This document shows, piece after piece, positions 4,721 through 52,720 of a DNA stretch of 64,000 nucleotides (its first letter is position 1; every line of letters starts with the position of its first letter). Under the pieces are notes generated by a model that saw only the letters and a list, made by a program, of their open reading frames with translations, had not been told where the DNA came from and made no database searches. The stretch covers positions 1 through 64,000 of the forward strand of contig NZ_ACYY01000012.1 in the NCBI RefSeq assembly GCF_000176015.1. Direction: 5' to 3'. The stretch is from Rhodobacter ferrooxidans (GTDB lineage: Bacteria > Pseudomonadota > Alphaproteobacteria > Rhodobacterales > Rhodobacteraceae). The translations under genes and the position numbers were made by a program.

Positions 4721-5797
4721 TCAGCCTACGTGCTCAAAAAGATCTCTAACGGGTGCTTGCTTTCTTTCAAGCCTGCCGAGGATGTAAAGCCGATAAATCG
4801 GTGAAATCTCCTTCATTATCTTCGCAACCCTACGCAACTCGGGCCTCTCGGCTCTAAGATCATCACCGCGCTTCCGCATCTCCTCAAAAATCTTATGAAT
4901 TCGAAAAAGTTCAATAAAGTCGAGCCAGTAAGGGTCGAGATTTGTTGGCGCTGTGTGGTCGATATTTCCGGTTCGGATCTGGTGTTCGGCGATTTTCACT
5001 TGCTCTATGCTCTTCCACGGATTTCCTAAAGGCATCTCAGGCATTGGTGAATAATCGTGAAACCCTTCCCGATAATATGCTTCGGCGCCGGATGTGGAGA
5101 GGTTCGCGGGTCGCCCCTTAGTTGCGGCGCTGTCATGGTACAGATGTAGACTAGTCACGGAATGGCTATATCTGCCCAATCCAAGGCCCAATTCTCGAGC
5201 CGCTATCTCCTGTAGCATTGTAAACGTGAAAACATCATGCGGAAGCCCAAAGAATGCGTCGTTGGAACGCATGTGCGTGTGCATCAACAGTTGACCGTTT
5301 CTTATCGCAAATTGAATAGTGCAGGTGCAGGGCTTGTCACCGTTTTTCGGTTTTGCATCCGAGTTGTCATAAATCTGAACAAGCGCGTTTCTTGACCCTT
5401 CGCGTTCACGCAAAGTACGGATCACCCGATCCCATTCACTTGCTCCGTCGCGTTTTGCGAGCGCTTCCTTCCCGAAAATTCGCGGCCCATAGGCCCCGTT
5501 CGCCGTGACCTCATCCTTGATCAGCTTTGGGTAGTTTGGGATATAATGCTTGATGAACTCGACGCGATCACTCCCCGATAAGTACCAAAAAAGTTCTCCA
5601 AGTGGGCTGAAGGCTTTGGCTTTGGAGAACGATCGGCTAAGGCGCGCCCGAGGGTTCTTCAGCTCCAAAAGTGCACCGAAGACCTCTGTGCTCTTTCCCT
5701 TGCTGGAGTCGACCACAAAATTCCCACGCCCGGTGAGCAGCTGCTTGAAAACAACTCTCATGAGGTCGTCTAGGCTGTCCTCGCTCGCATGAAACAC
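4721..5797 (-). CDS. Thymidylate-synthase-like pyrimidine (hydroxy)methylase, predicted dCMP-type
   Basis: A 358-aa thymidylate-synthase-fold protein. Landmarks in order: GELFWYLSG (Glu68, E. coli TS Glu58), AYGPRIFG, catalytic Cys157 in KPCTCT, Arg177 and Asp180 in MRSNDAFFGLPHDV, and His218/Tyr220 in SLHLYHD. In TS the motif is GLPFNI and its Asn selects dUMP. Here that Asn is Asp188, the residue found in dCMP hydroxymethylase and known to shift TS toward dCMP. I therefore predict 5-methylation or 5-hydroxymethylation of dCMP, using methylene-tetrahydrofolate. The N-terminal phosphate loop (SSKGKSTEVFG) also departs from DRTGTGT. The start is GTG with a weak RBS; ATG at 5761 is possible. 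First gene of an operon with the HhH-type protein. Confidence 0.75.
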   Translation of the reverse strand: MFHASEDSLDDLMRVVFKQLLTGRGNFVVDSSKGKSTEVFGALLELKNPRARLSRSFSKAKAFSPLGELFWYLSGSDRVEFIKHYIPNYPKLIKDEVTANGAYGPRIFGKEALAKRDGASEWDRVIRTLREREGSRNALVQIYDNSDAKPKNGDKPCTCTIQFAIRNGQLLMHTHMRSNDAFFGLPHDVFTFTMLQEIAARELGLGLGRYSHSVTSLHLYHDSAATKGRPANLSTSGAEAYYREGFHDYSPMPEMPLGNPWKSIEQVKIAEHQIRTGNIDHTAPTNLDPYWLDFIELFRIHKIFEEMRKRGDDLRAERPELRRVAKIMKEISPIYRLYILGRLERKQAPVRDLFEHVG

Positions 5798-12376: not shown

Positions 12377-12823
12377 TCAGGGTTCACAAAGCTTCGCATC
12401 ATCAAGTGTGGTGGCGTAGAGCAGACAGGTTTCCATGTCGGCTAAGGTAGCCTCCAATCGGTCGTAGTCGGATTTCAGCGCCCGGGCTGCGGTGATCGTT
12501 TCGTCAAATTCTGTGGCCAGCTCTTTGTGCTTCTTGAGCAGGCCATTGTACTCATCAACCAACGTGTTGTTTTCACCGAGCAGCTTGTCATAGGCTGCGG
12601 CGCATTCGGTCACGTTGGATTTGCATGTGAAGCCTTCGTAGTCGCATTGGTACTTGTCGAAACAGGCTGCGTTCTGGTCGACGCACATGCCGCTGCTCGA
12701 GCAGACCGTATCGCCAAATCCAAGGCATGCTCCCCGGTCACCGTATGAACAGCTGAACCCCTGCTGTGCACTGACGCCGGTCGGGATCAAGACAAGGGCG
12801 ATCAACAGCCTTAGGATCTTCAT
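12377..12823 (-). CDS. Secreted Cys-rich coiled-coil protein coupled to the R-M gene
   Basis: 148 aa. A signal peptide (MKILRLLIALVLIPTGVSA, cleavage before QQ) is followed by a domain with about ten Cys in roughly 60 residues (e.g. CSYGDRGAC, CSSSGMC, CDYEGFTC) and then a heptad-like helix (about 80-130) ending in two more Cys. The ATG at 12823 overlaps the TGA of the type ISP enzyme (ATGA), so it is translationally coupled to it. I do not recognise the family. A periplasmic or surface protein coupled to a restriction enzyme is unusual (see findings). The frame extends upstream to 13135 but that part is antisense-like and lacks an RBS. Confidence 0.75.
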   Translation of the reverse strand: MKILRLLIALVLIPTGVSAQQGFSCSYGDRGACLGFGDTVCSSSGMCVDQNAACFDKYQCDYEGFTCKSNVTECAAAYDKLLGENNTLVDEYNGLLKKHKELATEFDETITAARALKSDYDRLEATLADMETCLLYATTLDDAKLCEP

Positions 12824-15800
12824 GCCATCACATCCAGCTTCGGCAGGCCGCGCACGATTTCCATGGTTCGCAGGCTCACGGTGATGACGCGTTGGAACAG
12901 TTCCAGCGGGTAGGCGGGGTTGGTCATCGTCTCGATGGCATAGCGGTTGGCGTCGTTTTCGATGCCGCTGTCCTTGTCGGTCTTGACCACCTGGCGTTCC
13001 ATCACCCACTCCAGTGCGGGCTTGCCGTTCACGACGTAGTCGTAGGCGTCCAAGGGCACGTCCTGCATGGTGATGTTGGCGTTGTAGATGACGGTGGTCT
13101 TGTCCTTTTCCTTGCCCGCCTTGCCGAAGGCCCATTTCGTGACGCGGTAGAAGGCCTCGGGGTTCTTGATGTCGGCTAGGCGCAGGTCGCCTTGTTTGAT
13201 CGTGACCGGGTAGGGTTCGACCGTTTCATAGTTCACATGCAGATCGCCGAGTTCACGGCCAGCGCGGCTGAAGGCCCAGAAGTCGGCGGCGGTTTTCACG
13301 CGGGGGATGCGGGGCAGTTCCTTCGACAGGTTGTCGGCATACTTCGCGCGGTAATCCTCAGAATGCAGCAGTCCGTAGACATAATAAAACAGGTCTTCCT
13401 TGGTGATCGTCTCGCCAGCGTATGCGTCCTGAAAGTGCTTCAAGCCAGCGTCGGTGATGCCGTCGATAGAATTGCCGGTCGGCTCCGCGGAGAACAGGTC
13501 CACCTCTTCGTCGTCCGCATCGACTTGCGCAAAATACAGTTTCAGCGGGAAGCATTGTATCCCACCATCACTGTGGATGTCCGCGATTGCATCAGTCATC
13601 AATGCAAGATGCCCGTCACCGTTCCATCGCTGCTTAACCATTATGTGAAGATTCGATGAAGTGCTGCCCGGGAATATCTGGGGCATGAGGTAACGATTTT
13701 CGTTCATCATCGGGTCGTAGTACAGCCATGTCTTCGTAAATGGCCGATGGATAGCTTTTGCAAGGGCGTCTTTAGAAAACTCAGTCGGTTTTCCCCGAAC
13801 TGCGTTCAATCTCAAAACCCATGACCAGCTTATATCGAGAAGAGAGATTGGAAGGTTATCTGTGGTTTTCTCGGTGCCGGAGAAATCTTTTTGCTGCGCA
13901 ACACTATTGTAGAAGTCGATGGTCTTTCGCATGTTATTGGCGAGGTCATGCTTGGAAAAATTATAGCACCAAGAGTCCCGATTGGTTTTGAGCCCGCTTG
14001 AGTATGACTTGAAAACCGCCTGCTGTTCCTTATTCTTCTTGTCACCGAACGTGATGAACTCTCCAAAGCCGCTATCCCTTTGGCTCAGCCAATCGTTGTG
14101 CTCATTGGGTCTTATGCACTTCCAACCATCCGCCGCTGCGACACCTTGGATGCTGCCGAAATCTCGGACAATCGACAGCTTCTGCTTTTGGTCCAAATAG
14201 TCGCCAATATCATGGAAGTAGATGTTCCCACGTTCAGCTCGTTTCTCACTTTTGACAAAAACGCTTATCGCAATCGGCGCTCGACTGCCCGAACCGAATA
14301 TCTTCCCGCCTTCGCGGCGCGATTGTTCACCGCTTGTTCTTTGGTTTCCGCGCAGGTGGAAAATATAGAGGTCGGTGAACTCCTCTGCCAGGCAAGCCCG
14401 CAATCCATCTGCAGCCTTTCCTTCCACCCAACCTGCGTTCGTAACATACGCCAGCACACCTTCGGACCCAATTCGGTCCGAAGCCCATCTGATCGCACGA
14501 ATGTAGCTGTCATAAAGACTGCGCGGGTTTCCTGTGGAGCGTGCGGCATAGGTTTGTTGAATGCGGTTATCAAGGCCGGTATATCGAACGTTAGCTGCTT
14601 CGTCATTGTCGCTGCCTTGCCCTGCGGAGTAGGGCGGATTGCCAATGATGACCCGAATATCCGTCGCCTTCTGCCGCTTCCGCCGCTCCGAGTTGTCGGG
14701 CATGTAATGCGAGATCAGGTCGTCGCTTTCATACATCTGGAAGGTGTCGGTCAGGCAGATGCCCTCGAACGGCACATACTCGCCGCCCTGCAGCCCATGA
14801 TAGACCGCCTCGATGTTGATCGCGGCGATGTAATAGGCCAGCAGAACGATCTCATTCGCGTGGATTTCGTGGCGGAACTTGTGTTCCATCTCTTCGGGCG
14901 CGATCAGGCCGGATTGCAGCAGCCGGGTGATGAAGGTGCCGGTGCCGGTGAAGGGGTCGATGATGTGGACGCCAGGCGAGCCGAGGGTCTGGCCGAATTC
15001 GGACTGCAGCACCTCGTTCACCGAATGGATGATGAAATCCACGATCTCGACCGGCGTGTAGACGATGCCCAGCTTTTCGGTTGTGCGCGGGAAGGCGCGG
15101 CGGAAGAACTTGTCGTAAAGCTCGACGATCAGTTTCTGCTTGGCCTGGGGGTCGGTGATGCCCTGTGACCGCAGCTTGACGCTGGCGTAGAACTTTTCGA
15201 GGTCGCGGGATTCCTTGTCGAGGTTGGCCTCGTTCAGCACATCCAGCACGCGCTGCATGGCGCGGGAGACCGGGTTTTCGGCGGTGAACTTGTGGCCTTC
15301 GAACAAGGTCTCGAACACGGGCCTGGTGATGATGTGCTGCGCCAGCATCTCGATGGCGTCGCCTTCGGAAATGGTGTCGTTCAGATCATCACGCAGTTCG
15401 CCAAGGAAGGCATCGAAGGCGCGGCGTGCTTCGGTGTCGGGGTCTTTCAGCAGGGCGGTCAGCCGGGTGATGTGGTTCTTGGCGATTTCGGCGATGGAGG
15501 CCGACCAATCCTCCCAATAATCGCGGGTGCCACATTTCTTGACGATCTTGGCCATGATGGCGCGGGAGAATTCGTCGATCGAGAAGGTCATCTCGGTCTG
15601 GGTGGGTTCGGGGCCTTCGATCACGTCATCGCCTGGTCCGCCGCTGCCCAACCCGATGCCGGAACTGGCGGCCTTGGTCTTGTTCGGCAGCTTCTGGACG
15701 ACAGCGGTGACCGAGCGCAGTTCTTCGGAGTCTGCGTTGATGCCGACAATCTCGACTTTGTCCGAGATATCTTGGCCGAGGGAGGCCTTGTTGATCGTGC

Positions 15801-17709
15801 TGTCGAAGCGTTCGTCATGGGCGCGCAGGGCGTTCAGGATTTGCCAAACGACGCGGTAGCGTTCATTGTCGGCCAGCGCCTGTTCGGGCGGAACCCCGGC
15901 AGGGACGCCCACGGGCAGGATGACATAGCCCATCTTCTTTCCGTCAGCGCGGCGCATGACGCGGCCGACCGACTGGACGACGTCGATCTGGCTCTTGCGT
16001 GGATGCAAGAACATGATGGCATCGAGGGCGGGAACATCGACGCCCTCGGACAGACAGCGGGCGTTGGTCAGGATGCGGCAGACATTGTCGCCCGCATCAG
16101 CCTTCAGCCAATCCAGCAGTGCGCCGCGCGTTTTGGCGTTGAATGTGCCGTCGACGTGTTCGATCTGGCACTGGAGGTGGTCAGAGGGGGTGTCGTCGTC
16201 GATCAGGCTGTCCTGCCCGAGGTATTCATCGACCACGGCTGTGAATTCGTCGCGGATTAGCTTGGAACTGCGGATGTCCTTGGCGAAGGCCAGCGCGCGG
16301 CGCATCGGGTGGGGATCGGTCGAGACATCGGCCTTCAGGTCGATCTTGGTCAGGGCCTTGTAGCAGCCAATGATCTTGGTGGCGTCGTCCAGAACCAGTT
16401 CGCTGCCCGCGTCGCCAAGGCGCTTTTGCACGGCCGCGCTGACCAGTCCCTCGTCCATCGCTAGCACGATGACCTTGTAGTCGGTCAGCAACCCGTTCTG
16501 CACGGCCCAGCCGAACCCGCGATAAAACAGTGTCTCGCCGAAAAGGGCCGGGTTATCCATCGAGGCCAGTTCGGCTCCGACCTCATCCGCCTTGCTGCGG
16601 ACATTGTCGCCGAAAATCCGGGGCGTCGCCGTCATGTAGAGGCGCTTGCGTGCCTTCACATTGTCATTGCTGTGAATCTTGACGAAATTCGACTCTTCAT
16701 CGCCGTCGAGTGTGGCACCTGTGGTGCGGTGCGCCTCATCGCAGATGATCAAGTCGAACTCGGGCAGCCCGGCTTCCTGCGCGCGGGTCAGTGTGACTAT
16801 GGATTGGTAGGTCGAGAAGATGACGGTCATCCGCTCTGGATCGTCCTCGCCAGCTTTTTCGGCGACCTTGACCGGGTCAGTGGTGGCGGGAAACGCCAGG
16901 TCATGGATTTCGATTTCCGCAATGTCGTCCGTGCTTGTGCGGCGCTTGCCAACGTGGGCGTCGGAGCAGACAGCGAAGGCGCGGATCGGCGTTTCGGTGT
17001 CGTTCGTCCATTCGCGCACGGTCTGGGACATCAGTGCTAGCGACGGCACCATGAACAGAACGCGCTTGCCCTTTCCTGCGATGGCTTCGGCGATCTTCAG
17101 CGAGGTGAAGGTCTTCCCGGTGCCGCAGGCCATGATCATCTTGCCGCGGTCGGCCGCGGCGAGGCCCTTGCTGACGTCTGCCAGCGCATCCTTCTGATGG
17201 TCCAACAGGGACTTCTTGGCGCTTAGGACGATTTCGCCGCGCGCCTCGAAGATGGTCCAATCGATCCGACTTTCTCGCAAGTCGGTCAGGCCGATGCGCA
17301 CAACCGGGATCACTTGATCACGGATCATTTCCTCGGCGTTTGTGCCCCATTCCTTTTCAGTCGTGTCGAGAACAACGCGCCTGCGGAAAGGCTCCTTGCC
17401 CGAGGCTGAGATGAAACTGTCGATGTGGATCTTCTGGATACGGGCATCCGCGGCGTAAAACTTTGCTTGAATGGCTGCGAACCCTGCCTCATTCCGCAGT
17501 TTTGCAACCAAGTCAATACCAACGTCTTTGCCGTCGCGGCCATTGGTTTTTGCCCAATCCGACCAAGTCCAGACCGCTTCATATTCTTCTGACTGAACAG
17601 GGTCATTCATGAAAAACACGAGGGCCAACCGTTCGAAATAGGTGCCCTTTTCACGCTCTGTAACTGCAGCGTCGCGGTAAGACTGTAAGATTCGGTCGAT
17701 GGCAGTCAT
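12820..17709 (-). CDS. Type ISP-like single-chain restriction-modification enzyme
   Basis: A 1629-aa multidomain protein. N-terminal Mrr-like nuclease with Asp66 and the QAK motif at 81-83 (GIDLVAK...AIQAKFY). SF2 helicase/translocase with Walker A CGTGKT at 195-200, DEAH at 324-327 and a motif VI-like QSVGRVMRR near 590. Helical coupler. N6-adenine methyltransferase with IDPFTGTGTF and catalytic NPPY. C-terminal target-recognition region. This is the LlaBIII/LlaGI architecture, in which one polypeptide methylates, translocates and cuts DNA. ATG at 17709 is preferred (GGGGT upstream) over GTG at 17715. All catalytic motifs look intact, so it is probably active as plasmid-borne phage defence. 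Confidence 0.88.
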   Translation of the reverse strand: MTAIDRILQSYRDAAVTEREKGTYFERLALVFFMNDPVQSEEYEAVWTWSDWAKTNGRDGKDVGIDLVAKLRNEAGFAAIQAKFYAADARIQKIHIDSFISASGKEPFRRRVVLDTTEKEWGTNAEEMIRDQVIPVVRIGLTDLRESRIDWTIFEARGEIVLSAKKSLLDHQKDALADVSKGLAAADRGKMIMACGTGKTFTSLKIAEAIAGKGKRVLFMVPSLALMSQTVREWTNDTETPIRAFAVCSDAHVGKRRTSTDDIAEIEIHDLAFPATTDPVKVAEKAGEDDPERMTVIFSTYQSIVTLTRAQEAGLPEFDLIICDEAHRTTGATLDGDEESNFVKIHSNDNVKARKRLYMTATPRIFGDNVRSKADEVGAELASMDNPALFGETLFYRGFGWAVQNGLLTDYKVIVLAMDEGLVSAAVQKRLGDAGSELVLDDATKIIGCYKALTKIDLKADVSTDPHPMRRALAFAKDIRSSKLIRDEFTAVVDEYLGQDSLIDDDTPSDHLQCQIEHVDGTFNAKTRGALLDWLKADAGDNVCRILTNARCLSEGVDVPALDAIMFLHPRKSQIDVVQSVGRVMRRADGKKMGYVILPVGVPAGVPPEQALADNERYRVVWQILNALRAHDERFDSTINKASLGQDISDKVEIVGINADSEELRSVTAVVQKLPNKTKAASSGIGLGSGGPGDDVIEGPEPTQTEMTFSIDEFSRAIMAKIVKKCGTRDYWEDWSASIAEIAKNHITRLTALLKDPDTEARRAFDAFLGELRDDLNDTISEGDAIEMLAQHIITRPVFETLFEGHKFTAENPVSRAMQRVLDVLNEANLDKESRDLEKFYASVKLRSQGITDPQAKQKLIVELYDKFFRRAFPRTTEKLGIVYTPVEIVDFIIHSVNEVLQSEFGQTLGSPGVHIIDPFTGTGTFITRLLQSGLIAPEEMEHKFRHEIHANEIVLLAYYIAAINIEAVYHGLQGGEYVPFEGICLTDTFQMYESDDLISHYMPDNSERRKRQKATDIRVIIGNPPYSAGQGSDNDEAANVRYTGLDNRIQQTYAARSTGNPRSLYDSYIRAIRWASDRIGSEGVLAYVTNAGWVEGKAADGLRACLAEEFTDLYIFHLRGNQRTSGEQSRREGGKIFGSGSRAPIAISVFVKSEKRAERGNIYFHDIGDYLDQKQKLSIVRDFGSIQGVAAADGWKCIRPNEHNDWLSQRDSGFGEFITFGDKKNKEQQAVFKSYSSGLKTNRDSWCYNFSKHDLANNMRKTIDFYNSVAQQKDFSGTEKTTDNLPISLLDISWSWVLRLNAVRGKPTEFSKDALAKAIHRPFTKTWLYYDPMMNENRYLMPQIFPGSTSSNLHIMVKQRWNGDGHLALMTDAIADIHSDGGIQCFPLKLYFAQVDADDEEVDLFSAEPTGNSIDGITDAGLKHFQDAYAGETITKEDLFYYVYGLLHSEDYRAKYADNLSKELPRIPRVKTAADFWAFSRAGRELGDLHVNYETVEPYPVTIKQGDLRLADIKNPEAFYRVTKWAFGKAGKEKDKTTVIYNANITMQDVPLDAYDYVVNGKPALEWVMERQVVKTDKDSGIENDANRYAIETMTNPAYPLELFQRVITVSLRTMEIVRGLPKLDVMA

Positions 17710-17807: not shown

Positions 17808-18743
17808 TCACGCCCCCTTCTCGAACTTCAGGACCGGGATGCCCAGCTTCTTGGCCTTGTCGGCGAGGTTTTCCTGAATGCCATTGCCCGGGAAGACGAG
17901 GACACCCACAGGCAGCACGTCCAGTATGGCGTCGTTGCGCTTGAAGGGTGCGGCCTTGGCGTGTTTGGTCCAATCTGGCTTGAAGGCTACTTGCGTGACC
18001 TTGCGGGCTTCGGCCCATTTGGCGGCGATAAGTTCGGCCCCCTTGGGACTGCCACCGTGCAGAAGGACCATGTCGGGATACTTGGCCTGGACCTGATCGA
18101 GCTTGCCCCAGATCAGGCGGTGATCGTTGAAGTCGGTCCCACCGGTGAGGGCGATCTTGGTGCCTTGGGGGAGCATCACTTCGGTTTCCGAGCGGCGCTT
18201 GGCGGACAGGAAGTCGCGGCTGTCGATCAACGCTGCGGTCAGGTGCTTGTGGTTCACCATTGAGCCAGAGCGGGGCCGCCAGGTCGAACCGGTATGAAGC
18301 TCGAACGCCTCGGCGCTGCGGTCGCGGAAGGCTTCAAGACAATGCCGCCGTTCCACGAGGCTGGTGCCTTCGGCCGTCAAGCGCTCGAGCTCAGTCGATT
18401 TCACCTCAGAGCCGTCTTGTTCACGCTGCAGGCGGTGCTGCGCCACTTCGTTGTCATCGAGCAAGCGTTCGGTGCGGGCGGCGGCGCGGTGGAAGAGGTT
18501 GACTTGGCCCCAGAGCAATTCTTCGAGGTCCGGTTCCATCCGGGTGTCGCCAAGGGTTGCGACGAGGGCATCGAAGATATCGCTGACCGCGTCGATGAGG
18601 CGCTCGGGTTCCGGCATCGGGCGCAGATCGATCTCGTCCTGGAAGGCACGGGTGCCGTAGAGCTGAAGCTCCTGAAGCGCCCAGGCGGTCTGGGAAAGGG
18701 CGGGGCTGCGGTCGAAATCTTCGCTCTGGAATTGGGTCGTCAT
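17808..18743 (-). CDS. DUF2493-domain (YspA/SLOG-like) protein
   Basis: 311 aa. The C-terminal 120 residues form the DUF2493 domain: KIALTGGTDFNDHRLIWGKLD, then VLLHGGSPKGAELIAAKWAE and the final ILDVLPVGVLVFPGNGI, a Rossmann-like SLOG fold expected to bind nucleotides. The N-terminal 180 residues are acidic and helical (about 90-160 likely coiled coil). ATG at 18743 is chosen for GGAGG 9 nt upstream; a frame open to 18815 is rejected. A 7-bp hairpin sits 27 nt before the start. This gene recurs with the Toprim and strawberry-notch genes on alphaproteobacterial plasmids; its function is unknown. Confidence 0.8.
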   Translation of the reverse strand: MTTQFQSEDFDRSPALSQTAWALQELQLYGTRAFQDEIDLRPMPEPERLIDAVSDIFDALVATLGDTRMEPDLEELLWGQVNLFHRAAARTERLLDDNEVAQHRLQREQDGSEVKSTELERLTAEGTSLVERRHCLEAFRDRSAEAFELHTGSTWRPRSGSMVNHKHLTAALIDSRDFLSAKRRSETEVMLPQGTKIALTGGTDFNDHRLIWGKLDQVQAKYPDMVLLHGGSPKGAELIAAKWAEARKVTQVAFKPDWTKHAKAAPFKRNDAILDVLPVGVLVFPGNGIQENLADKAKKLGIPVLKFEKGA

Positions 18744-19105
18744 GGTCTTTTGCCTCCGGCTGCTCGGGCCCGCGCGACATCCCGCGCGGCCTTCATGGGC
18801 TGCGAAAGCTGTCACTGGGGACGCCGCTTCACCCCCTCTTTGGGGCCGGAACGCATGTGGAGGAGGACGGTGGGCGGCTGATTTGTCTCGCGATGCAAAG
18901 GCGGGGCTCGTCCCCGCCGGCGGAAATCAGTTGCCCTCCGTCCTTGAAGGGGCGGCCCCTTTGACGGCCGCCTGCCCATCTCTTGAAGGACGTGCGGGTG
19001 TCGGGTGGGTTCGAAAGCCGGGATGCGGGGAAAAGACGCGACCCGGTTACTCTAGCGATCCTTGACCCCTGCCCCGCTTCCTGACTGGCTTTGCGCTTTG
19101 ATAGC
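18744..19105. other. Intergenic region with hairpins; DUF2493 leader
   Basis: It contains the DUF2493 leader hairpin (CCGCGCG at 18770-18776 pairing with CGCGCGG at 18783-18789) and a second perfect hairpin GGCGGGG...CCCCGCC at 18900-18918, which may end the leader or the upstream Toprim transcript. No gene supported. Confidence 0.5.
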
Positions 19106-20137
19106 TCAGATCGTCAGCCGATGCTGATCCTTGAGGTCGATCTGCTGTGCCAGATGCAGGCGCAGCGCCACAACGCCGTGGGCACGGAGATCATCGTTGA
19201 AATCCCCAAGCCGCGGCTCCAGCACCCGTACGGCAATCCCGGCCTCGGTTGCTCTGGCGGTCAACCTCTCCGCCGCACGCTGCCCCGCCGGATCGCGGTC
19301 GATGGCGATGTAGAGGCGCTGCAACCCTGCGGGCAACAGGACAGCCCCGAGGTGAGACGACGAGAGCGCCGACCAGACCGGCAAGGAAGGTACAGCCTCG
19401 CGCACGGAAAGCATGGTCTCGATGCCTTCGCCCAACACGAGGGTTTGATCTGCGGGCACGATCCTGACGGCATTGCCCAGAAGGTGACCCATTGCCCGAC
19501 GGGGGATCTCGACAGCCGCCTTGTCCCGACCGTCAGGCGCCAACCAAGTGCGATGCACACCCTGCAAGACCCCTGCCAGATCGGTGACCGCCGCGATCAT
19601 CGCAGGTCTGGGCACAGGCTTGGTCTGACCCTCATCCCGATGCCAGCATTTCGGGTGGAAGCGTAGAGTTGAACTCGGCACCGCCTGAGTGATGCCCCGG
19701 GCACGCAGGTAGGTTTCTGCCTGAGAGCCCGCCAAAGACAGCGAGGCTGCAAACAAGCGCGATGCTGCTGCCGGCGTGCCCGAGGGGGATTTTCGGCTGC
19801 GCGGGGAATCGGCATCAGGGAGAACCGGCTGCGGACGGCCTAAATGCACCCGGGCCTCAGCTAGAAGATCGGGAAAGCGGGTGATGCCCGTGCGTTCGCG
19901 AATGATGTCGAGGAGATCGCCATGTTCCGAAGTGGCTGAATCGGTCCATTTGCCCCGGGCACCCGGCCCCGACGTGGGACCGGTCAACCTTACAAACAGC
20001 GATCTCCCTGGATTGTTCTGCAAATCGCCGACCATCCAGTAAGAGCCTTCCCGCCTTCCGGCGGGAAGATAATGGCGGCAAACGCTTTCGGCATTTTGCG
20101 AGAGGTCTCGCAGTATCTCTTCTGTTTCCAATGACAT
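19106..20137 (-). CDS. Toprim-domain primase-like protein (DUF7146 type)
   Basis: 343 aa. The N-terminal third resembles the zinc-ribbon/CHC-primase-like region of plasmid primases (SYWMVGDLQNNPGRSLFVR and GKWTDSATSEHGDLLDII), though the canonical Cys ligands are sparse. The C-terminal part is a Toprim domain: LVLGEGIETMLSV with the catalytic Glu near residue 235 and YIAIDRDPAGQRAAERL with the DxD near 285. It likely synthesises or handles primers during plasmid transfer or replication. It starts right after the strawberry-notch gene ends (TAA at 20149), so the two are an operon. ATG at 20137 is chosen; TTG at 20155 is an alternative. Confidence 0.8.
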   Translation of the reverse strand: MSLETEEILRDLSQNAESVCRHYLPAGRREGSYWMVGDLQNNPGRSLFVRLTGPTSGPGARGKWTDSATSEHGDLLDIIRERTGITRFPDLLAEARVHLGRPQPVLPDADSPRSRKSPSGTPAAASRLFAASLSLAGSQAETYLRARGITQAVPSSTLRFHPKCWHRDEGQTKPVPRPAMIAAVTDLAGVLQGVHRTWLAPDGRDKAAVEIPRRAMGHLLGNAVRIVPADQTLVLGEGIETMLSVREAVPSLPVWSALSSSHLGAVLLPAGLQRLYIAIDRDPAGQRAAERLTARATEAGIAVRVLEPRLGDFNDDLRAHGVVALRLHLAQQIDLKDQHRLTI

Positions 20138-20148
20138 GGCACACACGA

Positions 20149-23100
20149 TTAACAACCTTTGCGTGCATGTAGACCTTGGATGGGGAAACGTGCAAGCAGG
20201 TGGTCGAGCACGGAGATCCCACTAGCATCGGCGGGACAGAACAGCCGCAGCTTCCAGCTGATGATTTCCGAGAAGAAGCCATCGGCTTTGAGGCGGTCTT
20301 TTTGCGCTTCCGTGAACCCGGACAGCTCTATCCGGTTCACACCCATGACGCGGGACCGGTGCAACTCCATCGCTTCGGCGAGCCGCACCACGGTCTTGCC
20401 CTCCAGAATGAGGGCATGCACCTGCGCCGCAGTCAGTTTCGGCGCGTCAGCGGCCAGCGTGGTCGCGACCCAGGCGGGCGAGACACGGCGGCCGATGATG
20501 CGTTGGCCGTCATCGATCTGGAGGCGGTAAACACGGGTTTCGTCCTGCGGCAGCTGCTTCCAGATTGGCAACAGAAGCCCCGCGACGATGTGCAGTGAGG
20601 ATTCCGAGAACTCCGGCACCTCAGCCAGTTCCGCGGTCCAGGCGGCGACAAAGGCCGCGCGATCAGCCTCCAGCCAATGGGTGTCCTCCATCATCTTGAC
20701 CGGGAGCGTGTGGGTTTCCGTTGGCCGGATCAGCCGCAGGCGCGGCTCGATAGTGCCGTCGTCCAGCATCAGGCTGGTCGCGGGCAATTGCACCGCGGCG
20801 CGACCCGAGCGGCTGTTGACCAGAAGCCGCGCCTTGGGGTCCTCGAGCCAGTCCAGCGCATCAGCCAAGGAGACCGGTGCATTACGGATCTTCTGCGCTA
20901 TGGTCAGCAGCTGGGTTTCTGCCCCGGAACCGGGATGGGTGTAGATCACCCGAGCATCCGTGATACGGAAGCTCTCGGCGCGCAGGGTTTCCAGCCCGAG
21001 GTCATAGATCCCGGCGGCGATGGCGCCTTCGATGCGCTGCGCCAAAAGCTCCTCGAAGGCAGTAAACAGGATGCCCTGCATCGCAATCGTCAGCGCCAGC
21101 AGGCGATTGAGGAAAGTCGTGATGGGAGGCAGATCGTCCTTCAGACCGTTGTCATCTGTGAGGCTAAGGCCGGTCGCATCCTCGAAGGCCCCGAGCGAGC
21201 AACCCGGCACGTCACCGCGATAGAGTTTGCGGTAAAGCTGACGCAAGGAATCACGGGCGTAAGTCGACTCGAGGTTATCCTCGGGTCGGAACAGCCCCTG
21301 CCCACCGGTTTGGCGTTGGCCGCGTGTGATCGCCCCGAGAGTGTCGAGACGGCGCGCGATGGTGCTGAGAAACCGCTTTTCTGCCTTCACATCCGTGGCG
21401 ATGGGTCGGAACAGCGGCGGCTGCGCCTGATTGGTGCGGTTGGTGCGCCCGAGACCTTGGATGGCCGCATCCGCCTTCCAACCGGGTTCCAGCAGATAAT
21501 GGACGCGCAGGCGCTGGTTCCTGGCGCCGAGGTCGGCGTGATAGCTGCGCCCCGTGCCGCCCGCATCCGAGAAGATCAGGATGCGCTTTTGGTCGTCCAT
21601 GAAGGCGGCGGTTTCCGCGAGGTTGGCAGATCCGGCGCGGCTTTCCACGACCAGTCTTGCCGCAGGATCTTCACCCTTGCGGATGATGCGGCGCGAGCGG
21701 CCCGTGACCTCGGCCACCAGATCGGTGCCAAAGCGCTGCACGATCTGATCCAACGCGCCAGGCACGGGCGGCAGCGAGGCCAGATGCTCGATCAGCGCAT
21801 CGCGGCGGCGCACGGCTTCGCGGCATTCCACCGGCTGGCCATCGCGCGTGACGGGCCGGGAGGAGAGGTTGCCTTCGCTATCGGTGAAGGGCTCGTAGAG
21901 TTGCACCGGGAAGGAGTACTGCAAATAATCCAGGCAGCTCTCTCTTGGCGTGATGTCCACCCGCACATCGTTCCACTCATCCGTAGGGATGTCCGACAGG
22001 CGGCGTTCCATCAGCGCCTCGCCGGTGGAAACGATCTGGATGACGGCCGCATGGCCTGCGGCCAGGTCGGCGTCGATGGCGGCGATCAGGGTGGGGGTTT
22101 TCATCGAGGTGAGCAGATGGCCGAAGAAGCGCTGCTTGGCGCTCTCGAAGGCCGAGCGGGCGGCGGACTTGGCCTCGCGGTTCAGCGTGCCGCTGTCGCC
22201 CGTGATGTTGGCCGCCTCCATCGCCGCCGCAAGGTTGTTGTGGATGATGGCAAAGGCCCCGGCATAGGCATCATAGATGCTTCGCTGCTCGGGACTGAGC
22301 GCATGAACCAGCATCTCGTATTCGACACCGTCATAGGACAGCGACCGGGCGGTGTAGAGGCCAAGCGACCGCAGGTCGCGGGCGAGGACTTCCATCGCGG
22401 CGACCCCTCCCGCCTCGATGGCCTGGACGAACTCCGCACGGGTTGCGAACGGGAAATCTTCGCCGCCCCAGAGGCCGAGCCGCTGCGCATAGGCGAGGTT
22501 GTGAACTGAAGTCGCCCCGGTGGCCGAGACATAGACGATGCGGGCACTGGGCAGTTTATGCTGCAGGCGCAGGCCAGCCCTGCCCTGCTGCGACGCTTCG
22601 GTATCGCCACGTTCGCCCTTCGATCCGGCGGCATTCGCCATGGCATGGCTTTCGTCAAAGAGGATCACCCCGTCGAAATCCGCTCCGAGCCAATCGACGA
22701 TCTGGTCGACGCGGGATTTCTTGGCCCCACGTTCTTCCGAGCGAAGTGTTGCGTAGGTGGTGAAGAGGATGCCCTCAGAAAGCGGGATGTCGCGGCCTTG
22801 CGCGAAACGCGACAGTGGCGTGACCAGCAGCCGCTCCTGACCGAGAGCTGACCAATCGCGCTGCGCATCCTCCAAGAGCTTGTCGCTTTTCGATATCCAG
22901 AGCGCCTTGCGCCGTCCTTGTGCCCAGTTGTCGAGCAGGATCCCGGCCGACTGGCGGCCCTTGCCTGCGCCCGTGCCATCGCCCAGGAAAAACCCGCGCC
23001 GGAAACGGACAACATCACTGGCGCCGTCAGGTGCCGCCGAGACAAGATCACCGGTTTCATCGACGTTCCAGGATCCTGCGAGATGGCCGGTATGGGCTTC

Positions 23101-24528
23101 GCCCGCGTAGATCACTGTCTCGAGCTGCGCGTCGGAGAGAAGGCCATCGCGCAACACGGCAGCGGGCAACTTCGGGCGGTAGCTGGGTTTTGGGGGCGCG
23201 ACCGAGGCCATGGCCGCCGATTGCACCAGCTTGGTCGGATGCGGTTCCGCCCCGGGGATGTTGATGGCCTGCAGGCGGAAGGTCTCGTAAATCGCATCCG
23301 AGAGGCGCGCGGTATCATCGTTCTCGCGCACCTCGCGCAGGGTGTAGGCGAGATCTTCGGCCTCGATCTTAGCGATGGCTTGCGCGGGTTGGGCCGCAGA
23401 AGTCGCGCGAGATATGCCGATGGCCTTGCGCGTGGAGGGCGCAGAGTTTCCCGGGAAGAGGGAAGATCGGCTCTGACTTGCTTTTGCCACGTGTTCCAAT
23501 TCGAGACGCGGCGGAACTTCGGCGGTGATCCGGGCTAGGAGATGCGCTGCATCCGGAGAGGCCAGCTGGCGCAGGTCAGCCGTGACACCACCCATTTCGC
23601 CACCACGGCATTTGTCGATGACCGAAATCCGGGTCTCGAAAGTGGTGCCATGCTTGGCGAAGGCGGCTCCCGACACAGCGCCGGTGAAGACCAGATGCGC
23701 GGACTCGGTCAGGCGGTCGAAAGTCTCGGCCCATGCCGGAGCGTCGGGCGCGAAATTCGCACCCGTGATGGCGACCAGCCGCCCACCAGGGGCCAGCCGG
23801 GCAAGCGCCGAGCGCAGATGCCGGGCCGTCGCCTCGGTCGTCCGACCATCGACGTTGGCCATGGCCGAGAATGGCGGGTTCATCAGGATGACGCTCGGGC
23901 GAACGCCCGCGTCGAGATGATCGTCAATCTGCGCGGCGTCAAAGCGAGTGACCGGGCAGCCCGGGAACAGCAAGCGCAGAAGGTCGGCGCGGGTGTCTGC
24001 CAACTCGTTCAGCGCGAGGCTGCCGCCCGCAATCTCGGCGAGGATCGCCAGAAGCCCGGTCCCGGCCGAAGGCTCGAGGACCAGGTCGCGCGGCGTGGTA
24101 TGTGCGGCGGCCAGAGCTGCAAGGCCCATAGGCAGCGGCGTTGAGAATTGCTGAAAGCGCTCCATCTCCTCCGAGCGCCGGGTGTGCGTGGGCAAGAGGC
24201 CCGCCACCTTGACGAGGATCGGCAGCAACGCTGCAGGCGAGCCAGCCCGTGCCAGCAGCGCGCGGCCGAATTTGCGCAAGAAGAGGATCAGCGCCACCTC
24301 GCCAGCCTCATAGGCGAGCTTCCAGTCCCAGGCGCCGGTCGCATCAGAGCCGCCAAAGGCGCGCTCCATTTCAACGCGCAGGCGCAGCGCGTCGATCTGG
24401 AAACCCTGCGCCAGATCGGGCTGCAGCGCCGCGGCCACGCTCAAGATCGCGGCGGCCGTATCGAGGGACGGGATGGGGATAACAGGCGCAAGCGCGCGCT
24501 CGGTCGCAAAAGGGGCGAGATGGGTCAT
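20149..24528 (-). CDS. Strawberry-notch-type helicase with N-terminal methyltransferase domain
   Basis: 1459 aa. Residues about 140-330 form a class I SAM-methyltransferase domain (LVLEPSAGTGLLAILAE and MNPPFSA, an NPPF catalytic motif). Around 500-720 is an SF2-like ATPase (GDGTGAGKGRQSAG as Walker A, LFDESHAM as Walker B). Near 1020-1060 is the helicase C motif GLGRTNRTNQ. This is the large SNO family common on alphaproteobacterial plasmids and ICEs. The combination suggests DNA modification plus remodelling, possibly anti-restriction or transfer-related, but the activity is not established. ATG at 24528 follows CGGAGT; the frame open to 24582 is non-coding leader with a large hairpin. Confidence 0.85.
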   Translation of the reverse strand: MTHLAPFATERALAPVIPIPSLDTAAAILSVAAALQPDLAQGFQIDALRLRVEMERAFGGSDATGAWDWKLAYEAGEVALILFLRKFGRALLARAGSPAALLPILVKVAGLLPTHTRRSEEMERFQQFSTPLPMGLAALAAAHTTPRDLVLEPSAGTGLLAILAEIAGGSLALNELADTRADLLRLLFPGCPVTRFDAAQIDDHLDAGVRPSVILMNPPFSAMANVDGRTTEATARHLRSALARLAPGGRLVAITGANFAPDAPAWAETFDRLTESAHLVFTGAVSGAAFAKHGTTFETRISVIDKCRGGEMGGVTADLRQLASPDAAHLLARITAEVPPRLELEHVAKASQSRSSLFPGNSAPSTRKAIGISRATSAAQPAQAIAKIEAEDLAYTLREVRENDDTARLSDAIYETFRLQAINIPGAEPHPTKLVQSAAMASVAPPKPSYRPKLPAAVLRDGLLSDAQLETVIYAGEAHTGHLAGSWNVDETGDLVSAAPDGASDVVRFRRGFFLGDGTGAGKGRQSAGILLDNWAQGRRKALWISKSDKLLEDAQRDWSALGQERLLVTPLSRFAQGRDIPLSEGILFTTYATLRSEERGAKKSRVDQIVDWLGADFDGVILFDESHAMANAAGSKGERGDTEASQQGRAGLRLQHKLPSARIVYVSATGATSVHNLAYAQRLGLWGGEDFPFATRAEFVQAIEAGGVAAMEVLARDLRSLGLYTARSLSYDGVEYEMLVHALSPEQRSIYDAYAGAFAIIHNNLAAAMEAANITGDSGTLNREAKSAARSAFESAKQRFFGHLLTSMKTPTLIAAIDADLAAGHAAVIQIVSTGEALMERRLSDIPTDEWNDVRVDITPRESCLDYLQYSFPVQLYEPFTDSEGNLSSRPVTRDGQPVECREAVRRRDALIEHLASLPPVPGALDQIVQRFGTDLVAEVTGRSRRIIRKGEDPAARLVVESRAGSANLAETAAFMDDQKRILIFSDAGGTGRSYHADLGARNQRLRVHYLLEPGWKADAAIQGLGRTNRTNQAQPPLFRPIATDVKAEKRFLSTIARRLDTLGAITRGQRQTGGQGLFRPEDNLESTYARDSLRQLYRKLYRGDVPGCSLGAFEDATGLSLTDDNGLKDDLPPITTFLNRLLALTIAMQGILFTAFEELLAQRIEGAIAAGIYDLGLETLRAESFRITDARVIYTHPGSGAETQLLTIAQKIRNAPVSLADALDWLEDPKARLLVNSRSGRAAVQLPATSLMLDDGTIEPRLRLIRPTETHTLPVKMMEDTHWLEADRAAFVAAWTAELAEVPEFSESSLHIVAGLLLPIWKQLPQDETRVYRLQIDDGQRIIGRRVSPAWVATTLAADAPKLTAAQVHALILEGKTVVRLAEAMELHRSRVMGVNRIELSGFTEAQKDRLKADGFFSEIISWKLRLFCPADASGISVLDHLLARFPIQGLHARKGC

Positions 24529-24552
24529 CGGAAACTCCGGACTGAGGGACAG

Positions 24553-24596
24553 GATCAGGCCCGGACACCCTCTTTCGGGCACCCTCAGGCCTGACC
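24553..24596 (-). promoter_or_regulatory. Leader hairpin of the strawberry-notch gene
   Basis: GATCAGGCC near 24553-24561 pairs with GGCCTGACC near 24588-24596, with an inner CCCGG/CGGGC-type stem. It begins 25 nt upstream of the ATG, the same position as in several other genes here. Confidence 0.5.
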
Positions 24597-47167: not shown

Positions 47168-49540
47168 ATGAAACCCACCGATCTGCACAGCAGCCACGCC
47201 CATCCAGACCCGGATATGCCCGAGGGCCTAGGCGTTCCAGAAAGTGGCACCGGGCTAACGTCCATCGACCCAGTCTGCGGCATGACCGTCACGCTGAAAC
47301 CCGACACTCGGACCGAGGCGTTTGGCGGCAAGGACTTCCATTTCTGCTCTGGCAAGTGCCAGACGAAGTTTCAGGCCGATCCGTGGTTCTATGCCTCCGG
47401 CCGGGCGGCGGGGCGTAAGAAAGTTGCCCCGGTCAACGTCCAGTATACCTGCCCGATGCACCCCGAGATCATCCGCGATGCGGCCGGCTCGTGCCCGATC
47501 TGCGGCATGGCGCTGGAGCCGATGCTGCCCTCGAACGAGCCCAGCCACGAGTTGACCGACTTTACCCGCCGCATGCGGATCTCGGTTGCCGCGGCGGTAC
47601 CGCTGATCATGCTGACGATGGGGCCGATGGTTGGCCTGCCGGTGCGCGATTGGATCGGGCATCAGGCGGCGGGTTACCTCGAGTTTGTGTTAGCAACGCC
47701 GGTGGTCCTTTGGGCTGCACTGCCGTTCTTCTTGCGCGGCTGGAATTCGGTTGTGAACCGCAGCCCGAACATGTGGACGCTGATCAGCCTTGGTGTGGCG
47801 GCGGCCTACATCTATTCCCTTTTTGCGGTGTTCCTGCCCGATCTGTTCCCCGAGGCCTACCAGATGGGCCACGGCGTCGGCACATATTTCGAGGCGTCGG
47901 TGGTGATCGTGGCGCTGGTGTTCTTTGGTCAGGTGCTGGAACTGCGGGCGCGCGAACGCACCGGCGATGCGATCCGCGCGCTTCTCGACCTCGCGCCGAA
48001 GACCGCGCGGCGCATTTTGCCGGACGGCACCGAATATGATGCGCCGCTGGAAAACATCATGGAGGGCGACCGTCTGCGCGTGCGCCCCGGCGACGCTGTG
48101 CCAGTCGATGGCGTGGTCATCGAAGGTCATTCATCCTTGGACGAAAGCATGCTGACCGGCGAGTCGATGCCGGTCGAAAAAGGGCCGGGAGATGCGGTGA
48201 CCGGCGCCACCATCAACAAAAACGGAAGTCTTGTCATCGAGGCTGGCAAGGTTGGCGCAGACACCGTCTTGGCTCAGATCGTGGCCATGGTGTCGAACGC
48301 GCGCCGGTCGCGCGCACCAATCCAAGGGCTGGCGGATCGGGTGTCCGCAATCTTCGTTCCGACCGTAGTTGGGATCGCACTACTGGCCTTTGCGGCTTGG
48401 ATGATCTTTGGCCCCGAGCCAGCCCTGGTCTTTGCCATCGCGTCGGCGGTGTCGGTGCTGATCATTGCCTGCCCCTGCGCGTTGGGTCTTGCCACCCCAA
48501 TCTCGATTACGACGGCGGCTGGACGCGGCGCTCAGGCGGGCGTGCTGATCAAAGACGCTGAGGCGCTGGAGCGGATGGCAGGAGTCGATACGCTGATCGT
48601 CGACAAGACGGGCACACTAACGATGGGAAAGCCCAAACTGACCGATACGGTGATGCTTGGGGACGTGGCCGTCACAGACCTTTTGTCACTGGCGGCGGCG
48701 CTGGAACGTGGGTCCGAACACCCGCTTGCCGAAGCCATTGTCGAGGGGGCTGACGCGCAGGGGGCGTCCCGGCAAGAAGCAGCGGATTTCGAGGCGGTCA
48801 CCGGCAAGGGTGTTCGCGGCAAGGTCACAGGTCGCTCGGTTGCGCTTGGCAACGCGGCCATGATGCAGGAAATGGGCTTGGACACTGCACGCGCGGAGAC
48901 ACAGGCGGACACTCTGCGCGAAGAGGGCAAGACCGCGATGTTTATCGCTGTCGACGGTGTGCTGTCAGGTATCGTCGCCGTCGCAGATCCGATCAAGGAG
49001 TCGACCGCACAGGCGATAAAGGAACTGCACGCTCAGGGGCTGCGCGTCATCATGGCAACCGGCGACAATGAACGCACCGCACAAGCGGTCGCGGGCAAGC
49101 TGGGCATAGATGAGGTGCGTGCGGGAGTGTTGCCCGAGGCCAAGAAAGACCTGATCGACCAGTTGCGCCGTGAAGGTCACAAGATCGCCATGGCCGGCGA
49201 CGGCGTCAATGACGCGCCTGCACTGGCGGCGGCAGATGTCGGCATCGCCATGGGTACTGGGGCTGACGTCGCGATGGAAAGCGCGGGCATCACGCTGCTC
49301 GGCGGCGATCTGATGGGCATCGTCCGGGCGCGCAAACTTGCTCGGGCTACCTTGCGCAATATCAAGCAGAACCTGTTCTTTGCCTTTGCTTACAACGCAC
49401 TTGGCGTACCGATCGCAGCCGGGCTGCTTTATCCGGTCACCGGACTTCTTTTGTCGCCCATGATTGCGGCAGCAGCGATGAGCCTGTCGTCGATCTCCGT
49501 CATCTCCAATGCGCTGCGTCTTCGGCGGGTAGAGCTATGA
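47168..49540 (+). CDS. copA: Copper-exporting P1B-type ATPase with YHS and metal-binding N-terminus
   Basis: 790 aa. N-terminal YHS-like domain ([10 protein letters not shown] and [10 protein letters not shown]), heavy-metal binding domain (YTCPMHPEI...[10 protein letters not shown]), then a P-type ATPase core: CPC in [19 protein letters not shown] phosphorylation site, HP in [10 protein letters not shown] and [10 protein letters not shown]. The last helices contain YN (FAYNALGVP) and MSLSS, the P1B-1 signature for Cu(I)/Ag(I). Exports copper from the cytoplasm. AGGAGA precedes the ATG. Last gene of the EF-hand operon. Confidence 0.9.
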
Positions 49541-50206
49541 AGACCGGAGATGGCAGGAAATCTTAACCTTTGGGAACAGGCATGCCAGATCACGCATAAC
49601 GCCGAGGAGGGCTTGTTTGTAGAGAGCCAGTTGACCTCCATCAGCTATATCGGAACTGGCTTCGAGAAAAACATGCGACCAGACCGCAAAGATAGCCTCT
49701 GACCCAGCCATGGTCCCCTCTGACGAGAACATTCTCTTTGGGGAACTTAGGGTAAATGAAGCGAGTGAGAGTGTCACCAACGCAAGAGCTGCGTAGTGAC
49801 CGCACTTCGCAAGTGTGACCACTGGCATAAACCGGCGGAGCGGTTTCCGCATCATGCCTGCGGCAGGCTTCAGCGGGTCATCATCGATCGGCAACCGCGA
49901 TCATATGGAAGCGCGTTCATGGCGGAGAGGATCGTGTCAAACGATCGCAAGGGGGTTTGTATTCGCACCTTTGGCCATGGACGGGGGAAGGGGCTCCTAG
50001 GGTCGGTGACTGGTAAAGACAAATACTGAATGGGGTGTGCAAAGGCAGGATTTTGTGCTGACAGCAGCCAACCTACAACCAATGTGCCAGATAATTTGGC
50101 GAGTTGACCAACTTCTCGGTAAGGATGATGCCCCTCGAGAGTTTTCATCTATACATTATTGGTCGCCCTGCTAGGCTTTCCCAAAACCAACCAACAGGGG
50201 TAAGTC
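49541..50206. other. Intergenic region between the copper and nickel operons
   Basis: No convincing gene. A minus-strand frame at 49535-49894 (from ATG about 49853) with one hydrophobic stretch (YAALALVTLSLASFTLSS) is a weak candidate, and the plus frame at 49796-50029 could be a decayed fragment. No riboswitch recognised upstream of the nik-type operon. Confidence 0.4.
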
Positions 50207-51754: not shown

Positions 51755-51778
51755 CCTGACCCAAGGAGGGCGAATTCG

Positions 51779-52720
51779 ATGCAACGCATGTTCATGCGGC
51801 GAGTGGGGCTTGCCCTCCTTCTGATGCTGGCGGCGACGGCGCTGACCTTTTGGCTGGTTACAGCCGCCCCCGGAAACGTGGCAGCCCTTATTGCCGAACG
51901 GGCAGCGGGTGCGGGCGCAGATGGCGAGATGATCGCCAAGATCGCCGATGATCTGGGCCTGAACGATCCCCTGCCAGTGCGCTATGCGCGCTGGCTAGGG
52001 GATGCCTTAACCGGGGATTTCGGAGTCAGCCTGCGGACCGGCAAGCCGATGGCCGAGGAATTCGCCGAGCGTATTCCGATGACGCTCGCGCTGCTGGCGG
52101 GCGGCGGGGTTCTGGCGCTGGTTTTGTCCTTGGCGATGGGCATCGCCGGGGCTGCGTCGAACGGCGGCATTGTCGACCGGGTGCTGCACGGGTTGGCTCT
52201 GGTCGGAGCCTCGACCCCGAACTTCTTCGTCGCGGCTATGCTGGTGATCGTGTTCTCGGTCTGGCTCGGGATGGTGCCGACCTTCGGTGTAGCCGGCCTG
52301 ACCTCTTGGCTGCTGCCCTGGATCACCATCGCGCTCTTCCCGGCTTCGGTGCTGGCGCGCGTCGTGCGCGTGAATCTGCAAGACACCATGTCGCGCCCCT
52401 TCGCAACCACGGGTTTTGCCAAGGGCCTGACCCGCAGCGCGGTCTTGCTGCGTGAAGCTCTGCCAAACATCGCTATCCCCTACATGACCACCTTCGGCGC
52501 GCAGTTCACGCTGATGATCATCGGCGCCATTGTGGTCGAGCGGGTGTTCGGCCTGAACGGCGTAGGTGCCTTCTTTATCGAGGCGATCCGGTTTCGGGAT
52601 TTCATCGGGATGCAGGCGATCCTGACGCTGTTCGTGGTGTTCTTTGTCTCGATCAACTTACTCGTCGACGTCTTGGCGATGCTGGCAGATCCCCGTCTCC
52701 GCCGCCCGAGGAAAGCATGA
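51779..52720 (+). CDS. nikB: ABC transporter permease, NikB-like
   Basis: 313 aa, six predicted TM helices and the BPD_transp_1 layout (N-terminal helix, periplasmic part DDLGLNDPLPVRYARWLGDA, then the EAA loop REALPNIAIPYMTTFG). Forms the membrane channel with NikC. Start follows AAGGAGG. ATGA overlap with the next gene. Confidence 0.78.
   Translation: MQRMFMRRVGLALLLMLAATALTFWLVTAAPGNVAALIAERAAGAGADGEMIAKIADDLGLNDPLPVRYARWLGDALTGDFGVSLRTGKPMAEEFAERIPMTLALLAGGGVLALVLSLAMGIAGAASNGGIVDRVLHGLALVGASTPNFFVAAMLVIVFSVWLGMVPTFGVAGLTSWLLPWITIALFPASVLARVVRVNLQDTMSRPFATTGFAKGLTRSAVLLREALPNIAIPYMTTFGAQFTLMIIGAIVVERVFGLNGVGAFFIEAIRFRDFIGMQAILTLFVVFFVSINLLVDVLAMLADPRLRRPRKA

What the first reader, a model, noticed from the sequence alone, without database searches (positions are those of the whole stretch)
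12377..17709. Secreted Cys-rich protein translationally coupled to a type ISP-like enzyme
A protein with a clear signal peptide and about ten Cys overlaps the end of a single-chain restriction-modification gene by ATGA. A periplasmic partner has no place in known type ISP biology. It could block phage adsorption or DNA entry, giving a two-layer defence.
Basis: partly seen in the sequence, partly recalled or inferred. Interest (0 to 1): 0.55.

Follow-up and report, generated by a model that had tools for sequence, protein, structure and literature searches.

The report
Secreted stalk protein riding with restriction genes
A small exported, cysteine-rich, probably rod-shaped protein is repeatedly encoded directly behind several kinds of DNA-cutting defence genes, and also within phage genomes, in one group of bacteria; it may be an unstudied outer defence layer, but its function is untested.

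Summary
Window 12377-12823 (-) encodes a 148-aa protein with a signal peptide and ten cysteines. Its ATG overlaps the TGA of a complete type ISP gene (12820-17709, -) by four bases. It is not specific to type ISP either. I found 20 loci of this unnamed family. In 14 of 20 the gene starts at the stop of a restriction gene: type ISP (7), ISP remnant (2), type I HsdR (4) or an MmeI-type enzyme (1). The other six lie in or beside phage genes (5) or in a chromosome (1). In one prophage lineage the gene occupies a defence slot whose restriction cargo swaps. A second, unrelated secreted protein can fill the same position. The protein is a cysteine-rich head, a coiled-coil stalk whose length changes only in steps of seven residues (19 of 19), and a Cys-Cys cap. 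Three copies stay open beside a broken restriction gene, so it probably acts on its own. The best reading is a periplasmic exclusion-type prophage accessory gene, about 40% likely. A true two-part ISP machine is unlikely. Interest is moderate.

The parts
12820..17709 (-). Type ISP restriction-modification gene, 1629 aa, complete
   Evidence: Pfam: Mrr_cat_2, ResIII, ISP_coupler, N6_Mtase, Type_ISP_C; PADLOC best match REase_MTase_IIG PDLC03597, residues 1-1627
12377..12823 (-). Secreted Cys-rich stalk protein gene, 148 aa
   Evidence: Translation; purifying selection; 19 other loci of the family
12820..12823 (-). ATGA overlap of the ISP stop codon and the start codon of the small gene
   Evidence: Sequence; same 4-nt arrangement in L013, L014, L002, L015, L061
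12767..12823 (-). Signal peptide, residues 1-19, cleavage predicted before the conserved Gln
   Evidence: Hydrophobic core; across the family -3 is A/G/S/V/T and -1 is A/G/S in 16 of 19 members (exceptions L020, L021, L069), counted by hand; own rule, no predictor was available
12623..12766 (-). Cys-rich head, residues 20-67, seven Cys
   Evidence: Invariant Cys columns in alignments A2 and A3
12428..12622 (-). Helical stalk, 65 residues, carrying the eighth Cys (C74)
   Evidence: AlphaFold2 helix 70-136; mean pLDDT 64 for residues 71-80, then 86-94 per block of ten up to residue 140; lengths in steps of seven across the family
12386..12427 (-). C-terminal Cys-x12-Cys cap, residues 133-146
   Evidence: Spacing 13 in 19 of 19 members

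Best explanation
The small gene encodes an exported, disulphide-rich periplasmic protein made of a Cys-rich head on a coiled-coil stalk. It is cargo of mobile elements: prophages and plasmids of the own bacterial family, and some other phages whose hosts I could not name. It docks at the 3' end of the last gene of whichever restriction-modification system the element carries, and so is probably made together with it. Most likely it acts on its own in the periplasm or at the outer membrane as an exclusion protein that hinders attachment or DNA entry of competing phages, while the restriction enzyme attacks DNA that does get in. Shown: sequence, recurrence, docking to three restriction types, the prophage slot, selection, the heptad stalk lengths. 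Inferred: export, disulphides, co-expression. Conjectured from context only: the exclusion function.
For: In 14 of 20 loci the gene lies at the stop of a restriction gene or its remnant; where a usual start codon is present it stands within -11 to +3 nt of that stop (13 of 14; L018 has none). The partner is type ISP (window, L013, L014, L002, L015, L061, L062), ISP remnant (L016, L017), HsdR (L018, L063, L064, L065) or MmeI-type (L020). In one prophage lineage the restriction cargo swaps between ISP and type I while the small gene and an exonuclease stay. The same position holds an unrelated secreted protein after HsdR in L125, L133 and L139. In L066-L069 the gene lies on the opposite strand directly beside a tail-fibre or tail-protein gene (PHROGs run on L067 and L069), a typical place for an added prophage gene. 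Purifying selection. Stalk lengths 30, 44, 58, 65 and 79 are all 2 modulo 7.
Against: No functional evidence exists, and no known exclusion or defence family is matched. The Cys head was not resolved by AlphaFold2, and fold search gave nothing at E <= 0.001. The gene is absent after most relatives of its partners: 10 of 13 ISP genes and 33 of 36 HsdR loci. In L071 and L072 the exonuclease stays and the small gene is missing; 11 of 16 contigs with this slot lack it. The 14 docked loci are not independent: the window, L013 and L014 are close kin, and L063 and L064 carry identical small proteins, so only about three separate dockings are secured. L021 lies in a chromosome with no phage or restriction gene recognised by eye. 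No protein partner or receptor is known.
Confidence: 0.4

Rival explanations
1. A lysogenic-conversion or fitness gene of the cell envelope (surface, adhesion, stress) with no role in phage exclusion; it sits by restriction genes only because both are cargo of the same elements.
For: Signal peptide, Cys-rich head and stalk fit many envelope roles; six of 20 loci have no restriction gene; it stays open beside broken restriction genes in L016, L017 and L020.
Against: Tight docking to three different restriction types within a few nucleotides is more than shared cargo needs.
Confidence: 0.32
2. A passive neighbour: the small gene and exonuclease are a conserved edge of the prophage slot that serves as homology for swapping restriction genes, and was carried onto plasmids by chance.
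For: The restriction gene changes while the edge genes stay in L061-L065; 11 of 16 contigs with this slot do without the small gene.
Against: Selection on the protein; in the window, L013 and L015 the ISP-small gene pair is present without the exonuclease; L020 has the pair near a tRNA gene with no phage gene recognised by eye.
Confidence: 0.15
3. A true two-part machine: the periplasmic protein senses an attached phage or incoming DNA and primes the type ISP enzyme.
For: ATGA overlap kept in six ISP loci, and a GTGA overlap in a seventh, L062.
Against: 10 of 13 ISP relatives lack it; it occurs with other enzymes and alone; beyond the leader no second membrane segment was seen by eye, so a route for a signal is not apparent.
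Confidence: 0.06
4. A phage lysis part such as an inner spanin with uncleaved leader.
For: Weak PHROG similarity to an Rz-like spanin over the coil, E 0.14.
Against: Found behind restriction genes on plasmids and on the strand opposite the neighbouring tail genes in L066-L069; cleavage motif and conserved Gln; the E-value is not significant.
Confidence: 0.04

Closest known systems
Type ISP restriction-modification enzymes (LlaGI, LlaBIII)
   Same: The long gene has the full domain order of this family.
   Different: No secreted partner turned up in my two searches of the type ISP literature (listings only).
Periplasmic superinfection-exclusion lipoproteins: T5 Llp, and T1/phi80 Cor
   Same: Small phage-encoded exported proteins; Llp is periplasmic and has a disulphide (PMC9586334, passages seen). 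That llp lies beside the receptor-binding gene is recalled.
   Different: No lipobox here; ten Cys and a coiled-coil stalk; no library match; receptor unknown.
Prophage hotspots of antiviral systems (P2/P4 type)
   Same: A variable defence slot between conserved prophage genes (PMC9122126, passages seen).
   Different: A prophage lineage with a GpA-type terminase found here in viral contigs; an exported protein is a recurrent part of the cargo.
SNIPE, a membrane-bound nuclease that cuts phage DNA during injection
   Same: Defence at the entry step (PMC13190303, abstract and outline seen).
   Different: The small protein has no nuclease domain match and no anchor beyond the leader was seen.

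Membership tests
Type ISP restriction-modification enzyme | Mrr nuclease, SF2 helicase, coupler, N6 methyltransferase and ISP specificity domain in one chain | tested here: met
   Pfam matches in that order over 1629 aa
Type ISP restriction-modification enzyme | ATP-dependent translocation and cleavage at unmodified sites | not testable with these tools
   Only motifs visible in the sequence; motif names recalled
Exclusion lipoprotein (Llp/Cor type) | Lipobox with Cys at +1 | tested here: not met
   The mature part begins with Gln in the 19 members compared, with no Cys at the cleavage site
Exclusion lipoprotein (Llp/Cor type) | Sequence match to a known exclusion family | tested here: not met
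   No significant match in Pfam, NCBIfam, PADLOC or PHROGs; no direct comparison with Llp or Cor was made
Exclusion protein (works like) | Exported to the periplasm | tested here: inconclusive
   Hydrophobic leader in 19 of 19 members and a fitting cleavage site in 16 of 19 by own rule; no predictor or experiment
Exclusion protein (works like) | Blocks adsorption or DNA entry | not testable with these tools
   Needs phage assays
Prophage defence hotspot | Variable defence cargo between conserved phage genes | tested here: met
   16 contigs sharing the methyltransferase gene (87-100% identity) carry ISP, type I HsdR, NaeI or other cargo
Listed anti-phage defence system (PADLOC) | Small protein matches a defence model | tested here: not met
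   0 families for the small protein at E up to 1

The most novel reading that the evidence does not exclude
Mobile elements of these bacteria carry a modular two-layer defence: an exchangeable intracellular restriction system plus an exchangeable periplasmic exclusion protein docked behind its last gene. At least two unrelated secreted proteins (the Cys-rich stalk family and a 113-aa family) fill the outer-layer position. The stalk's reach is tuned in whole heptads to different envelopes or phages.
Probability: 0.25. Interest if true: 0.75.

Novelty: new variant of a known kind. Interest (0 to 1): 0.5.

Why it matters
Restriction is treated as an intracellular trade. If restriction operons of mobile elements often carry an exported partner, defence surveys that score only cytoplasmic genes miss part of the unit, and the genes behind restriction operons become a place to look for new entry blocks. 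The question becomes testable with one small gene. If the protein is instead an ordinary conversion gene, it still defines a new prophage protein family with an unusual head-and-stalk design.

Tried and rejected
Family libraries gave nothing significant for the small protein. The PDB sequence search gave only coil-like noise, best E 0.12. AlphaFold2 on two alignments resolved the helix but not the head, pLDDT under 50 in places. Fold search had no match at E <= 0.001. The phage record collection held no relative at E <= 0.01, and the neighbouring virion gene of L067 had none there at E <= 1e-10. The first viral-contig scan with the single sequence found none; scans with alignments found seven and nine. 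Class-wide searches found the family only in the own genome, 1 of 385, but at most 10 candidates per genome were scored, so misses are possible. I dropped one of the ten genome hits (G098, L011): 26% identity over residues 31-129, inside a longer coiled protein. L014 was left out of the tree and stalk counts because its small gene has an in-frame stop.

A search for the prophage exonuclease in 394 genomes matched 54, mostly distant relatives; among the 30 loci fetched only the three already known (G314, G302, G376) had the small gene.

Considered and rejected: the ATGA overlap as proof of function (such overlaps are common); an ISP-specific partner; a Mu-like prophage gene for L019, because the prophage border could not be placed; a spanin.

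Full report
What is there. On the minus strand, 12820-17709 is a complete type ISP gene of 1629 aa with Mrr nuclease, SF2 helicase, coupler, N6 methyltransferase and ISP specificity domains. Its stop overlaps the start of a 148-aa gene (12377-12823) by ATGA. The small protein has a hydrophobic leader, a cleavage-like V-S-A before a conserved Gln, and ten cysteines in the mature part. The leader was judged by my own rule; no signal predictor was available.

Is it more than chance. The protein is under purifying selection: dN/dS was 0.08-0.31 in the nine of ten compared pairs for which it could be computed; in three of these dS exceeds 1, so those ratios are rough. A four-base overlap by itself says little: 6 of 39 same-strand neighbour pairs in this window overlap by 1 or 4 nt under crude gene picking, which did not include the pair itself.

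Family survey. One genome per genus of the own family: 10 of 394 matched; one (G098) is a chance coil match, leaving 9. In the class, 1 of 385 matched, the own genome. Genome contigs gave Rhodobacter amnigenus (L013) and a Pseudotabrizicola MAG (L014). Plasmids gave one record, Roseicitreum antarcticum pRA03, which is G302. Viral contigs gave nine. That makes 20 loci including the window. They are not independent: the window, L013 and L014 are close kin, and L063 and L064 carry identical small proteins.

What precedes the gene. In 14 of 20 it lies at a restriction gene's stop. Seven follow type ISP: window, L013, L014, L002, L015, L061, L062 (in L014 only the gene's 3' part is on the contig). 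Two follow an ISP remnant: L016 (46 aa matched) and L017 (94 aa matched). Four follow HsdR of type I systems: L018, L063, L064, L065; Pfam was run on L018 and L063, the others are in the same protein cluster. One, L020, follows an MmeI-type enzyme with an 11-nt overlap. In L063-L065 a GTG start stands 3 nt after the stop; in L018 no usual start codon stands there. The six others are L019 (beside an S24 repressor and Mu transposase, border unresolved), L021 (chromosomal, no phage gene recognised by eye) and L066-L069 (next to a tail-fibre or tail-protein gene, opposite strand).

The prophage slot. L061-L065 share a layout: early genes, restriction cargo, small gene, RNase_T+BRCT exonuclease, two N6/N4 methyltransferases, and then, where the fetched stretch reaches it, a GpA-type terminase. 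pRA03 carries the same slot in what looks like a partial prophage beside repABC. Sixteen viral contigs share the methyltransferase gene at 87-100% identity. Five have the Cys-rich gene (L061-L065). Three have an unrelated 113-aa protein with a signal peptide after HsdR (L125, L133, L139). Eight have neither (L071, L072, L117, L119, L122, L123, L132, L136), so 11 of 16 lack the Cys-rich gene; L071 and L072 keep the exonuclease without it. These contigs were fetched through the small gene, the exonuclease or HsdR, so the shares are not frequencies.

Controls. Thirteen relatives cover the whole length of this ISP gene in 394 genomes, own included (11 in one piece, 2 in two; three of the 13 have an internal stop); 3 carry the small gene. 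In viral contigs 2 of 4 ISP loci do. Of 36 HsdR loci in viral contigs 3 do, the three already known; one of the 36 has only 71 nt downstream. The position behind ISP also takes other genes, for example an AAA_13 protein with the same ATGA in L025 and an AlbA_2 protein in L078. So the pairing is real and recurrent but optional on both sides.

Autonomy. The small gene is open beside broken partners in three loci: L016, L017, and L020, where the MmeI-type gene has a frameshift near its N-terminal end. The reverse also occurs: L014 has an in-frame stop in the small gene and L018 lacks its start. This argues against a strict two-part machine.

Anatomy. The head has seven invariant Cys. An eighth (C74) at the stalk's base is present in 14 of the 19 sequences compared and missing in L066-L069 and L021. 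The tree puts L066-L069 together with L021 (99/97), apart from the 14 others; L019 and L021 have long branches, so their places are unsure. The stalk between head and cap is 30, 44, 58, 65 or 79 residues. All 19 sequences compared give remainder 2 on division by 7, and hydrophobic residues favour three heptad positions. Five lengths need at least four changes; if lengths were free, four changes that are all multiples of seven would be a 1 in 2401 chance. The C-terminal pair is always 13 apart. AlphaFold2 gives a confident helix and an unresolved head.

Mechanism. Shown: docking to three restriction types, prophage cargo, selection, stalk lengths. Inferred: export and disulphides. Conjecture: exclusion of competing phages at the envelope. 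The analogy is T5 Llp, which is periplasmic and closes its receptor from inside (PMC9586334, passages), but the lipobox of that group is absent here, so this is not a member. Prophage slots for defence are known (PMC9122126, passages). A review of superinfection exclusion (PMC11436027, three passages) describes nothing like this in what I saw.

In print. My searches turned up no description of this family or of a secreted partner of restriction operons; I saw listings, and passages or an outline of four papers only, in an open-access library.

Noticed in passing
L125 7216-7557; L133 7216-7551; L139 1713-2054: A second, unrelated 113-aa protein with a signal peptide (judged by eye) follows HsdR in the same prophage slot; no significant Pfam match. 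A relative on a Roseibium plasmid has no restriction gene annotated within 7 kb.
   Followed up: partly
L025 6405-7905; L078 11346-12980: Close ISP relatives are followed by other genes: an AAA_13 protein overlapping by ATGA, and a Schlafen AlbA_2/HATPase_c_4 protein.
   Followed up: partly
L020 5900-9604: The MmeI-type gene is frameshifted near its N-terminal end while the small secreted gene behind it is open; a tRNA-Ser lies at 5662-5751.
   Followed up: partly
L016 6346-9621 (reverse-complement numbering): A gene that by eye looks like Cas9 (recalled motif, not searched) lies divergent to the small gene and an ISP remnant.
   Followed up: no
L061 2839-4896; L002 4814-6871: A GmrSD-type (type IV) restriction gene lies on the opposite strand just before the ISP gene; Pfam was run on L061, and L002's gene is in the same protein cluster.
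   Followed up: no
window 47168-54629: A heavy-metal type P-type ATPase and an oligopeptide-type ABC transporter lie on the same contig.
   Followed up: no
window 17808-24582: Upstream of the ISP gene lie a YAcAr SLOG protein and a Strawberry-notch-type helicase; the order is shared with L013.
   Followed up: partly
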